From Chloroflexota bacterium (GTDB lineage Bacteria; Chloroflexota; Anaerolineae; UBA1429), in assembly GCA_012729455.1 (NCBI GenBank), contig JAAYDC010000014.1, positions 164,692 to 228,691 of the forward strand: DNA of 64,000 nt. The letters run 5' to 3'. Position numbers and translations under genes: made by a program. The number at the start of each line of letters is the position of its first letter. Position 1 is the stretch's first letter. Shown piece by piece: positions 11,433-25,484 of the stretch. Under the pieces are notes generated by a model, which made no database searches, was not told the DNA's origin, and saw only the letters and a list, made by a program, of their open reading frames with translations.

Positions 11433-12416
11433 CTATGCCACCGTCATATCGGGCGCATAGCGCGTCAGATCCTCCCGCAGCTTTTTCAGGGCCAGATCAC
11501 GCGCCTTGGCCTCGAGCATCACATCATAGGGCTGTTCCGCCGTCTCACGCAGCATGCCGATCAGCTCAAAAGGCTGGATAAAATCGGCGTGCTCGGTCCA
11601 ACTGGGCGCCTTGATGTGATCGCCATGCCGGCTCATCTCGGTACGCGGTGAGCTAAAGTGGATCTTGGGAGTAACCCCTGCCGGCCAGCTGGCCACGCAA
11701 CGTGCGATCGCCTCCTGCCAGGGAATCAAGGTCGGGTTCAGCACTAGATGGTGCTGCCAATCGAACACCAGAGGCACCCCGCACTGCCGGCTGACCTCGA
11801 GCACATCCGCCACACTGAAAAGACGATCGTCATGCTCAAGCACCACCCGCCGCCGAATGGCTTCTGGTAGATTCGAATACTGCTCGCTAAAGCGCGCCAG
11901 CGCCGCAGGTTTATCGTCATAGCTACCGCCTACGTGCAGCACAATCACACTCTCCGGGCTGGTCGCCAACGCATCCAGAAAGGCCGCCTGCGCCGCCAGC
12001 TCGGAGATCATCCCAGTCAACCGCGCCTCGTCAGGGCAGGCCAACGAGACGCTGCTATAAGGGTGAAATGACAGGCGCATATCCAGCGCCTGCACACGAT
12101 CGGCCAACAATGCAGCCTCGTGAGCATAGGTGCACCACAACGCTGCCAGTGCCTGCTCCGAAGCAGCCTGTGGTGCCATGTTGCTGTGCAGACGGTACAT
12201 GCGGATGTGTTGTCGTTCGCAATAACCCAGAATGTCGCGCAGGCGCATCAGGCTGGCACCGCCCGCAAAAGGACCGCTGGGCGGGTCACCCAGGGGTGCC
12301 AGGTCGGGCTGTCCCAGGATGCGCACCGAAAAACCCAGGCGTCTTGCCTGCGCTGTAGTTACATGGTTAGCCTTGGGCAAGTTTCGATTTTCCATCTCGG
12401 ATGTGGTACTATTCAA
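11433..12416 (-). CDS. uvsE: UV DNA damage endonuclease, UvdE/UvsE family
   Basis: RLGFSVR..., [55 protein letters not shown]. Confidence 0.87.
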
Positions 12417-18287: not shown

Positions 18288-19217
18288 TTATTGCGGCGGC
18301 TGGAATGCGTTCCACCGCTTTATCAGCTCCAGCATGGCCGGATCATCGGCATAGTCAGATGTCAGCGCTACCGCCTCGGTAGTGGCTTTCACCACGATAT
18401 GCTGCCGGTCGATCTCGAGGCATGTGTGGCCCACCCATTCGCCCTGGTAGCCCTGCTGCACGATCACCGTGCTACCGACCGTCTCTGGCTCGGACATCAG
18501 TGTGCGGTCGCTCCCGCCAATAATCACGTCGATGGTGGGCACCGCCGCCGCCAGATCGCGATCGGCACGCAGCCCCTGACGTGAAAGCACCACAAAGAGA
18601 TCCGCCTGAGGGCCGATGGTGTTGATCACGCTGCGCACCGCCTCAGCCGCGTCACGCGTATCGGCCTGGTCAGCAATCATTGGCGCATGTATCTTTAATA
18701 CCGCCGAGGGCTCACTCACGCCGATCACTGCCACCCTCAGGCCGTTTTTCGTCACGATGGTATAGGGTTCTGTCAACAGCTCGCCTTTGGCATCCACCAG
18801 GTTGGCCGAAAGCAGCGGGAACTCGGCCGCCTCCTGCAGGCCCTTGAAGGCTTCCAGTCCCTCAGAGAGCTCCAGCGCACCGATCGCCATAGCATCATAA
18901 TGCATGTCATTCATCGCTTCGAGCAAGGCCTTGCCATCGGTATCGCTTGCGAATTGGATGCCAAACAGCGTGTTGCCGCTATCCACCAGCAGCACGTCGT
19001 GGTGCTCGCGCACCTCGTTCAGATAGGTTGCCCGCCGGGCAACCCCTCCTTTTTGGATGCCTCAACCGCAAGGTTCGATATAACCGTAAACATCGCCGGT
19101 GTGCAGCACCACCAGGCTGGCATTTGCAGCTGGTTTGCCGCAGGCCGCCAGGATCAACACCGTCACCAGTGCGGCAATCAGGGTCAGTCGCTTGAATGTG
19201 CGTCGAGTCGCAGGCAT
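18288..19217 (-). CDS. UshA/5'-nucleotidase-like lipoprotein phosphoesterase; candidate selenoprotein (in-frame TGA at 19062-19064)
   Basis: Reading from ATG 19217: MPATRRTFKRLTLIAALVTVLILAACGKPAANASLVVLHTGDVYGYIEPCG[TGA]GIQKGGVARRATYLNEVREHHDVLLVDSGN..., same frame as the 241-aa ORF; AAGGAG RBS; SECIS-like hairpin after TGA. Confidence 0.78.
19026..19044 (-). promoter_or_regulatory. Candidate bacterial SECIS hairpin (GGTTGCCC-GGC-GGGCAACC)
   Basis: Perfect 8-bp stem, 3-nt G-rich loop, 25 nt from UGA to loop. Confidence 0.6.
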
Positions 19218-19231
19218 ATCTCGCTCCTTAT

Positions 19232-19263
19232 AAAAAACGCGCTGGCCGGGGTGGCCAGCGCGT
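19232..19263 (-). terminator. Intrinsic terminator after sigA (ACGCGCTGGCC-ACCCC-GGCCAGCGCGT-TTTTT)
   Basis: Perfect 11-bp stem with T6 on minus strand. Confidence 0.85.
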
Positions 19264-19276
19264 CGGTTAGCCTCGA

Positions 19277-20350
19277 TTACCGCAGGTAGTCTTTGAGCTG
19301 GCAGCTGCGATGCGGGCTGCGCAGCCGGTCAAGCGCCTGATGTTCGATTTGGCGGATGCGTTCACGCGTCAGGCCAAACTTTTCGCCCACCTCTTCGAGG
19401 GTGTGAGCGCGCCCATCGCGTAAGCCAAAGCGCATCCCCAGGATACGCGCCTCACGCGGGCTGAGCGCCGTCATGACGCTCTCGAGGGCTTCACGCAGCA
19501 GCTTCTGATAGGCGATATCCGTGGGCGGCGGTGAATCCTCATCTTCGATAAAATCGCCGAATTCGGTATCGCCGTCATCCCCCACCGGACGCTCCAGCGA
19601 GACCGGATAACGCGAGATGCGCAGCAACCTCTCCACCTTGGTGCTGGAGAGGCCCGTCTGCTGAGCAATATCCTCGGAGGTGGGGCGGTGGCCGCACTCC
19701 TGCTCAAGCTGCTCGGAGATGCGGTATATGCGGCGGATCTGGTCGCCCGCGTGCACCGGCAGCCGGATCAGGCGGCTCTGCTGAGCCAACGCGCGCGTAA
19801 TACCCTGGCGGATCCACCAGGTGGCATAGGTGCTGAACTTGTATCCGCGGTGATAGTCGAACTTTTCGACAGCCTTCATCAGGCCGATATTGCCCTCCTG
19901 GATGAGATCCAGGAATGGCACGCCCTGGCCGATATACTTTTTGGCCACGCTCACTACCAGGCGGGTGTTGGCCTCGATCAGGTGCGAGCGGGCGTTCTCG
20001 CCGATAGCTACCTCGTCCTCGAGCTTTTCACGTTCGTCTTCGCTGAGCGTTTTATCGCGCAGTTTGGCGCTGGCGCGCTCGCCCGTTTCGATCTGGCGGG
20101 CCAGCTTGACCTCTTCGGCGCCGGTCAGCAGGGGCACTTGTCCCATCTGCTTAAGGTAGAGACTGACAGAATCATCGGTAGAAATGTCGTCGAGGTCGTT
20201 GCGGGTATCGATCTGGGTGGTTTCGTCTTCGGGCGGTAGCTCGTTTTCGTCGGTCAGGCCCAACTCAGAGACGATCATCTCGGCCTCGAAATCAAGACCC
20301 TTTTCTTCGAGCTCATCACTATCAGTCAACTCTTGCAGTTTCTCTTCCAA
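19277..20350 (-). CDS. sigA: RNA polymerase primary sigma factor (RpoD/SigA family)
   Basis: [66 protein letters not shown]. Confidence 0.96.
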
Positions 20351-24421: not shown

Positions 24422-24498
24422 TTGGCGAACTGTCATTTGGGAGCACACTGCGCGCTGAGAAATGTGTGACTATGCCCAAAACAACTGGCCGGCGGCAG

Positions 24499-24526
24499 TT
24501 GACATACTCGCCCCGCTGACTAATCT
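24499..24526 (+). promoter_or_regulatory. Sigma70-type promoter TTGACA-16-TAATCT
   Basis: Hexamers upstream of the PHP gene. Confidence 0.5.
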
Positions 24527-24593
24527 GGTTACGACGATCTGGCGCCGAACGACCGCACTGTCACCATCCAAACATCTGATCAAGGAGCATGAA

Positions 24594-25484
24594 ATGGCCT
24601 GGACCTCTCCCTTTAGCCTGCCCGGAGCCTGGTATCGCGGCAACTTGCACGCCCATACCACCCAATCAGACGGCCTCTTCTCACCTGAGGAAGTCACTGC
24701 CTTTTACCGCTCAGTTGGCTATGATTTTATGGCCATCACAGACCACTGGGTCTATACCGCCGGCACACGCTCTGCCGATGGCAGCTGGATCACCATTGCA
24801 GGCTCCGAGCTGCACGGCGAGGGCTACCACATGCTGACGGTTGGCACCAGCGGCTTGCCCGACCGCGCCCTGGCGGCCGACCCGGCAGTGCTGGCGGCCG
24901 AGGTAGCGCGCCTGGGCGGGCTGGCCTTTTATGCGCATCCTTATTGGACGGGCCAGACCTATGACAAGCTCGTTACCACGCCAGCTGTTCTGGGTATCGA
25001 GGTCTATAACGGCGTGTGCGACCAGGAGGTCGGACTGGGGTATTCGCGCAACGAATGGGATGAGGCGCTCTGCACCGGCAAGCAGCTCTATGGCCTGGCC
25101 ACCGACGACGGCCACGGCGGCGGAGGCCACAAGGCACTCGGCTGGGTGATGGTGCGCGCCACTGAGCTCGAAGAGGGCGCCATTATCGAGGCGCTGCGCA
25201 AGGGCAACTTTTATTCCAGCAACGGGCCGGCCATCACCGACCTGCGCCTGACGCGTCAGGACGGTAAGCCCGCCCTGGTGGTGCGCTGCAGCCCTTGCCG
25301 CTCCATCACCCTGTATGCCGCCATGCCTATGGGCCGACGCATCAACGCCCCTGAGGGAGGGCTGATCACCTCGGCAGTCCTTGGGGTGTTTCCTGAGCAG
25401 CGCTTTGTCAGGGTCGAATGCGAAGACGCCACCGGGCATGTGGCCTGGTCCAACCCGGTATTTATGGAGGATCTGCTGGACTGA
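24594..25484 (+). CDS. PHP-like metal-dependent phosphoesterase
   Basis: GNLHAHTTQSDGLFSPEEV, DFMAITDHW, FYAHPYW; AAGGAG RBS before ATG 24594. Confidence 0.85.
   Translation: MAWTSPFSLPGAWYRGNLHAHTTQSDGLFSPEEVTAFYRSVGYDFMAITDHWVYTAGTRSADGSWITIAGSELHGEGYHMLTVGTSGLPDRALAADPAVLAAEVARLGGLAFYAHPYWTGQTYDKLVTTPAVLGIEVYNGVCDQEVGLGYSRNEWDEALCTGKQLYGLATDDGHGGGGHKALGWVMVRATELEEGAIIEALRKGNFYSSNGPAITDLRLTRQDGKPALVVRCSPCRSITLYAAMPMGRRINAPEGGLITSAVLGVFPEQRFVRVECEDATGHVAWSNPVFMEDLLD

What the first reader, a model, noticed from the sequence alone, without database searches (positions are those of the whole stretch)
18288..19217. Candidate selenoprotein: UshA-like lipoprotein phosphoesterase with in-frame TGA in an EPCG(U) motif
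The 241-aa ORF starting at 19013 is an artefact of a single TGA (19062-19064). Upstream, in the same frame, are an RBS, ATG 19217, a lipoprotein signal (LTLIAALVTVLILAACG) and the first metallophosphoesterase motif LVVLHTGDVYGYIEPCG. Downstream the frame continues directly with GIQKGGVARRATYLNEVREHHDVLLVDSGN. Related UshA-like proteins, to my recollection, carry EPCGC...GGLARR here, and some families are annotated as Cys/Sec variants. The TGA therefore sits exactly at a conserved Cys position, as expected for a Sec codon and unlikely for a random nonsense mutation. No other stop disrupts the 930-bp frame.
Basis: partly seen in the sequence, partly recalled or inferred. Interest (0 to 1): 0.9.

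Follow-up and report, generated by a model that had tools for sequence, protein, structure and literature searches.

The report
Surface selenoprotein on dead nucleotidase scaffold
This gene, which looks broken by a stop codon, almost certainly encodes a real selenium-containing surface protein that is widespread in Anaerolineae-type bacteria; it has the shape of a nucleotide-cleaving enzyme but has lost that enzyme's metal-binding site, so its selenium probably does redox chemistry instead.

Summary
One ORF, window 19217-18288 (-), 309 aa, is interrupted only by TGA at 19064-19062 in EPCG-U-GIQKGGVARR. It is very probably a selenoprotein gene. The genome has tRNA-Sec, selA, selB and selD, and selD itself is a Sec gene. 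Fifty distinct homologous sequences (the window's and 49 others, 33-47% identical to it) all carry TGA at the same column; two further homologues carry Cys. A hairpin meeting the published bacterial SECIS criteria follows the TGA in all 50, with synonymous compensatory changes. The family is not new as a kind: 'UshA-like' CxU selenoproteins are listed in reviews and in NCBIfam (NF041198, NF049981). This protein falls below both curated cut-offs: it is a single-domain lipoprotein form lacking the C-terminal half of NF041198. The 'phosphoesterase' label is probably wrong about function: the fold is the 5'-nucleotidase N-domain, but 0/50 keep the His of DxH, the Asn-His of GNHE or the His residues of GGHSH. 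In 9 of 45 loci a DsbD/CcdA-type or thioredoxin-fusion gene lies within 3 kb on the same strand. Best reading: a surface-anchored thiol/selenol redox protein on a metal-stripped nucleotidase scaffold. Sec insertion is strongly inferred; substrate and partner are unproven.

The parts
18288..19217 (-). selenoprotein CDS, 309 aa with Sec52 (TGA read as U), start ATG 19217, stop TAA 18290-18288
   Evidence: homologues of similar length
19062..19064 (-). Sec codon TGA, residue 52, in CxU motif (Cys50 codon TGC 19070-19068)
   Evidence: column is Sec in 50/50 sequences
19026..19044 (-). bSECIS hairpin GGTTGCCC-GGC-GGGCAACC: 8-bp stem, 3-nt loop beginning with G, loop starts 26 nt after TGA
   Evidence: published criteria
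19140..19217 (-). lipoprotein signal peptide with lipobox LAAC (Cys26)
   Evidence: lipobox-like Cys in most homologues
18288..19119 (-). 5'-nucleotidase N-domain fold without the dinuclear metal site
19224..19228 (-). ribosome-binding site AGGAG
   Evidence: sequence inspection
19236..19264 (-). terminator-like hairpin plus T-run between the upstream sigma-factor gene and this gene
19277..20350 (-). upstream RpoD-family sigma factor gene; same order kept in relative L053

Best explanation
The gene encodes a membrane-anchored, extracytoplasmic selenoprotein. SelB and tRNA-Sec decode UGA 19064-19062 with the help of the hairpin just downstream (strongly inferred from conserved, covarying sequence; no protein was seen). 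The mature domain has the 5'-nucleotidase metallophosphoesterase fold, but its dinuclear metal site has decayed. Its conserved functional centre is the Cys-Gly-Sec motif (Sec52 in 50/50, Cys50 in 49/50 by alignment) in the loop after strand 1, expected from homology to lie near the old active site. It most likely works as a thiol/selenol oxidoreductase: Sec attacks a substrate, Cys50 resolves it, and the pair is re-reduced across the membrane by a DsbD/CcdA-type carrier with thioredoxin or glutaredoxin domains. Such a carrier is encoded next door in 9 of 45 loci and elsewhere in this genome. Electron partner and substrate are inferred, not shown.
For: Sec decoding: tRNA-Sec (71.3 bits against gathering 47; ARAGORN SeC, anticodon tca); selA 569 bits; selB 333 bits; selD 335 bits, itself with an in-frame TGA, in the motif GAGUGSK. 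Conserved TGA. Among the genomes listed with the TGA form, those without a selA hit over cut-off are G004, G013 and G067 (at most 82% complete) and G016 (selA fragment at a contig edge). bSECIS: 100% of cells paired and 11 double changes in 30 sequences, 0/500 shuffles reach the covariation score; 6.8 contiguous pairs against 5.6 (synonymous codons shuffled within columns) and 2.3 (own codon usage), p at or below 5e-4 for both. Fold: pLDDT 92.3, Foldseek to 5'-nucleotidases E about 1e-26, TMq about 0.8. Lost metal site: while a canonical 5'-nucleotidase in the same genome keeps all motifs. Redox neighbours; own-genome fusion homologue at C27, 50% identity, E 4.6e-146.
Against: No protein or 75Se evidence. 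In this genome the DsbD-like gene is not adjacent; the neighbours are a sigma factor and other genes. In 36 of 45 loci no DsbD/CcdA-type gene was recognised in the DNA held. The TM part of the fusion protein has no significant Pfam hit, and its model (pLDDT 68) found no PDB match. L083 keeps Sec but lacks the Cys, so a CxU mechanism cannot be universal. Some relatives keep single ligands (16/50 the GD Asp, 26/50 the third-motif His).
Confidence: 0.6

Rival explanations
1. It is a selenoprotein, but the CxU binds and handles a metal or metalloid (arsenic, mercury, copper) rather than being a general redox catalyst; neighbouring ArsP-type permeases and an ArsR regulator would be its partners.
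For: ArsP_1 permeases near L058 and L080 (E about 1e-67) and an ArsR-type regulator near L054. Selenoproteins of organometal systems (SaoL, SaoT and others) are listed in PMC13188914.
Against: Such neighbours were found in only a few loci, and none is near the window gene. The same clusters also contain thioredoxin or DsbD_TM genes.
Confidence: 0.2
2. It is still a hydrolase of phosphate or sulfur esters, with Sec as nucleophile or metal ligand replacing the lost ligands; SoxB, the thiosulfohydrolase, would be the closest functional analogue.
For: TIGR04486 SoxB is the second-best family hit (102 bits); the fold is conserved.
Against: 0/50 keep the His of DxH, the Asn-His of GNHE or the His residues of GGHSH. 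The C-terminal nucleotidase domain is absent. The SoxB score is far below its cut-off of 550.
Confidence: 0.12
3. It is a truncated or inactivated 5'-nucleotidase gene with a nonsense mutation, or an assembly error.
For: One in-frame TGA and a missing C-terminal domain.
Against: Same-column TGA in 49 other distinct homologues at 33-47% identity; covarying SECIS hairpin; full sel machinery.
Confidence: 0.02
4. The TGA is read as another residue (Trp, Cys) by a variant code or general read-through.
For: The frame is open through the TGA.
Against: TGA ends 13 of 30 long ORFs in the window; SECIS hairpin and sel genes are present; the homologous residue in two relatives is encoded as Cys.
Confidence: 0.02

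Closest known systems
NCBIfam NF041198 'UshA-like (seleno)protein' (UshA_like_PCGU; the COG0737 CxU family of PMC2398784 and PMC9312934)
   Same: Same N-domain, PCGU motif as in the model's name, best family hit (176 bits).
   Different: Model is 519 aa with cut-off 275; this protein aligns only to positions 2-272 and ends there; 0 of 201 genomes sampled in the phylum pass the cut-off.
NCBIfam NF049981 'UshA-like (seleno)protein family 2'
   Same: Single-domain length (262 positions), UshA-like, (seleno)protein.
   Different: Listed with motif CxxU; this protein is CxU and scores 66 against a cut-off of 140. Some relatives (L080, L136, L173) do have CxxU.
5'-nucleotidases: UshA (1USH), CD73 (4H2I), snake venom 5'-nucleotidase (5H7W)
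   Same: N-domain fold (TMq about 0.8, 22-25% identity).
   Different: Metal ligands and catalytic His lost, no C-terminal domain, lipid anchor and CGU loop instead.
SoxB thiosulfohydrolase (2WDC)
   Same: Same superfamily, second-best family hit.
   Different: 102 bits against cut-off 550; no dinuclear metal site here.

Membership tests
Bacterial selenoprotein gene | Single in-frame UGA with conserved coding sequence on both sides | tested here: met
Bacterial selenoprotein gene | bSECIS: 4-16 bp stem, 3-9 nt loop, G in first two loop positions, 16-37 nt from UGA (criteria in PMC13188914) | tested here: met
   8-bp stem, GGC loop, 25 nt spacing; covariation. The free-energy criterion was not checked against the published threshold.
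Bacterial selenoprotein gene | selA, selB, selC, selD in the genome | tested here: met
Bacterial selenoprotein gene | Cys homologues aligned at the UGA column | tested here: met
   L047 (PCAC), L187 (GCC); rare, column read by eye from the motif
Bacterial selenoprotein gene | Selenium incorporation shown | not testable with these tools
   needs 75Se label or mass spectrometry
NF041198 UshA_like_PCGU | Score at or above curated cut-off 275 | tested here: not met
   176.3 bits
NF041198 UshA_like_PCGU | PCGU motif in the N-domain | tested here: met
NF041198 UshA_like_PCGU | C-terminal region (positions about 273-519) | tested here: not met
   protein ends at residue 309; alignment covers 2-272 only
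NF049981 UshA_like_Sel_2 | Score at or above curated cut-off 140 | tested here: not met
   66.2 bits, 57 bits
Functional 5'-nucleotidase / metallophosphoesterase | Fold of the catalytic N-domain | tested here: met
Functional 5'-nucleotidase / metallophosphoesterase | Metal ligands and catalytic His (DxH, GD, GNHE, H, GGHSH) | tested here: not met
   only the first Asp is conserved (46/50)
Functional 5'-nucleotidase / metallophosphoesterase | C-terminal substrate-binding domain | tested here: not met
   protein ends after the N-domain

The most novel reading that the evidence does not exclude
A third, widespread subfamily of UshA-like selenoproteins in which a metallophosphoesterase lost its metals and became an extracytoplasmic Sec oxidoreductase, re-reduced across the membrane by dedicated DsbD/thioredoxin fusions: a non-thioredoxin fold doing thioredoxin-type work at the cell surface.
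Probability: 0.35. Interest if true: 0.65.

Novelty: new variant of a known kind. Interest (0 to 1): 0.45.

Why it matters
The Global Ocean Sampling paper (PMC2398784) singled out UshA-like, with SelD and FdhA, as the exceptions among twenty major selenoprotein families that do not have a conserved Cys-based redox motif, so what the Sec does there has been unclear. Here the metal site proves to be gone in 50 distinct members while Sec is kept, and thiol-electron carriers sit beside the gene in a fifth of the loci. That points to a testable redox role. Practically, no sampled genome of the phylum passes the current NF041198 model, so these genes risk being called as truncated ORFs that start after the TGA, as happened in the mechanical ORF list of this window.

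Tried and rejected
A single-sequence scan of genome contigs found no relative; the alignment-based scan did. Pfam gives no hit for the protein and no relevant family for its relatives. A full-length NF041198 member above cut-off was sought in the phylum, in ten other genomes and in 60 relatives of Desulfosarcina, and none was found, so whether the long form also lost its metals was not tested. Sequences with GG-ARRA but no Sec were too few (three) to serve as a hairpin control. A tree was built, but its rooting is unclear and support values were not read out, so it is not used as evidence. The TM part of the DsbD-like fusion gave a weak model with no PDB match and only a weak profile similarity to CcdA. 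One family search failed for wrong coordinates. A look-up of annotation for a relative's contig failed.

Full report
Observation. The minus-strand frame 19217-18288 is 310 codons including the TAA stop, with one in-frame TGA at 19064-19062. It has an AGGAG ribosome-binding site, a lipoprotein signal with Cys26, and EPCG-U-GIQKGGVARR. The 241-aa ORF in the mechanical list is the part after the TGA.

Decoding machinery. The same genome (2.64 Mb, 30 contigs, 99.2% complete) has tRNA-Sec, selA, selB and selD. selD itself carries TGA in the motif GAGUGSK. TGA is not a general sense codon: 13 of 30 non-overlapping long ORFs in the window end in it.

Homologues. In the relatives search 68 of 100 genomes have a match, and nearly all of the best-scoring short homologues carry exactly one TGA. 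Fifty distinct homologous domains (the window's and 49 others, 33-47% identical to it) were read and aligned; all have Sec at the same column. Cys50 is present in 49 of 50 by alignment: L083 has ATU, and L080 has CPGU, a CxxU spacing. L136 and L173, outside this set, also have CxxU. Two further homologues have Cys at the Sec column: L047 in a relative, and L187 in a relative of Desulfosarcina. L191, from that same search, has Sec with no nearby Cys. Named records among the homologues are mostly Chloroflexi and Anaerolineae/Anaerolineales MAGs, with a few other labels (Ktedonobacter, Propionibacteriaceae) that may be binning errors. The window's genome itself is unnamed; G001 of its family has a contig of the same length (28334) as the record behind L053, a Chloroflexi MAG.

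SECIS. Starting about 17-20 nt after the UGA, the RNA can form GGUUGCCC-GGC-GGGCAACC. The single-sequence z-score is modest (-2.0). The comparative evidence is strong. In 50 sequences the pair between the third base of the Ala codon and the third base of the second Arg codon is C-G in 39, U-A in 10 and U-G in 1, and another pair of third-codon positions is G-C, A-U, U-A or G-U in all 50. Nearly all of these changes are synonymous. In a 30-sequence alignment all 180 cells pair, 11 have double changes, and 0 of 500 shuffles reach the covariation score; sliding the partner destroys it. Shuffling synonymous codons within columns gives 5.6 contiguous pairs against 6.8 observed; drawing from each gene's own codon usage gives 2.3. 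The sequences are related, so these p-values are indicative. The hairpin meets the published bSECIS criteria of loop size, stem length, loop G and 16-37 nt spacing (PMC13188914).

Fold and active site. AlphaFold2 on the 50-sequence alignment gives pLDDT 92.3. Foldseek matches the N-domain of 5'-nucleotidases (UshA, CD73, snake venom), TMq about 0.8. Sequence profiles agree. Aligned with the intact 5'-nucleotidase of the same genome (C24), the Asp of DxH is kept (46/50), but the His of DxH is 0/50, the Asp of GD 16/50, Asn-His of GNHE 0/50, the third-motif His 26/50, and the His residues of GGHSH 0/50 (for the residues not listed among the commonest, 0/50 follows from the motif strings and the counts shown). 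The window protein has D42, Y44, N82, A114, L115, R213, S236 and R238 at these places. A two-metal phosphoesterase mechanism is therefore unlikely. The model coordinates could not be inspected, so the distance of Sec52 from the former metal pocket was not measured.

Neighbourhood. In the window the gene follows an RpoD-family sigma factor, separated by a terminator-like hairpin with its T-run directly before the RBS. No promoter-like site was found between them. The sigma-selenoprotein order is kept in L053, where a TTGACA-17-TATGCT site follows the terminator (read by eye). In 9 of 45 loci a CcdA/DsbD_TM protein or a thioredoxin-TM fusion lies within 3 kb on the same strand. DsbD_TM is confirmed by Pfam in three of these loci. 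A thioredoxin-like gene is nearby in some, and ArsP_1 permeases and an ArsR regulator in a few. The own genome has a homologous fusion elsewhere (C27). No formal enrichment test was run, and some loci are from related genomes.

Relation to known families. UshA-like CxU selenoproteins were reported from the Global Ocean Sampling data (PMC2398784) and appear in reviews. NCBIfam has NF041198 (519 positions, cut-off 275) and NF049981 (262 positions, cut-off 140). The window protein scores 176 and 66. It aligns only to the N-terminal half of NF041198. None of 201 genomes sampled in its phylum passes the NF041198 cut-off. It is therefore best called a single-domain variant, or third subfamily, of the UshA-like selenoproteins, not a member of either model.

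Verdict. That this is a selenoprotein gene is about 97% likely in my judgement. Loss of the phosphoesterase metal site is shown by sequence. A redox role for CxU with a DsbD-type partner is the best inference (about 0.6), with metal or metalloid handling as the main rival.

Noticed in passing
window 19264-19236 (-): A 12-pair terminator-like hairpin with T-run ends about 20 nt before the selenoprotein ATG, directly before the RBS, and no promoter-like site lies in between. It could act as an attenuator of read-through from the sigma gene.
   Followed up: partly
L162, L163, L164 (G015:C4, G084:C120, G053:C12): In one related genus the selenoprotein gene lies tail-to-tail beside selA, the Sec synthase gene.
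   Followed up: partly
L083, about 826-1671: A homologue with ATU instead of CGU: Sec kept, partner Cys lost. L080, L136 and L173 have CxxU spacing.
   Followed up: partly
L058 and L065: Two copies of the selenoprotein gene flank the thioredoxin-DsbD-type fusion gene.
   Followed up: no
G000:C9:75735-76670 (L019): selD of this genome is itself a selenoprotein gene (GAGUGSK).
   Followed up: yes
G000:C27:40716-42614 (L175): 688-codon open frame with three CxxC thioredoxin/glutaredoxin-like segments fused to a TM domain with NPC and CTGQ motifs; TM domains of its homologues have no significant Pfam match.
   Followed up: partly
window 24462-25484 (+): CehA/McbA-family metallohydrolase (NF038032, 94.8 bits, cut-off 80).
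   Followed up: no
window 11433-12416 (-): UvsE UV-damage endonuclease (TIGR00629, 127 bits, cut-off 124).
   Followed up: no
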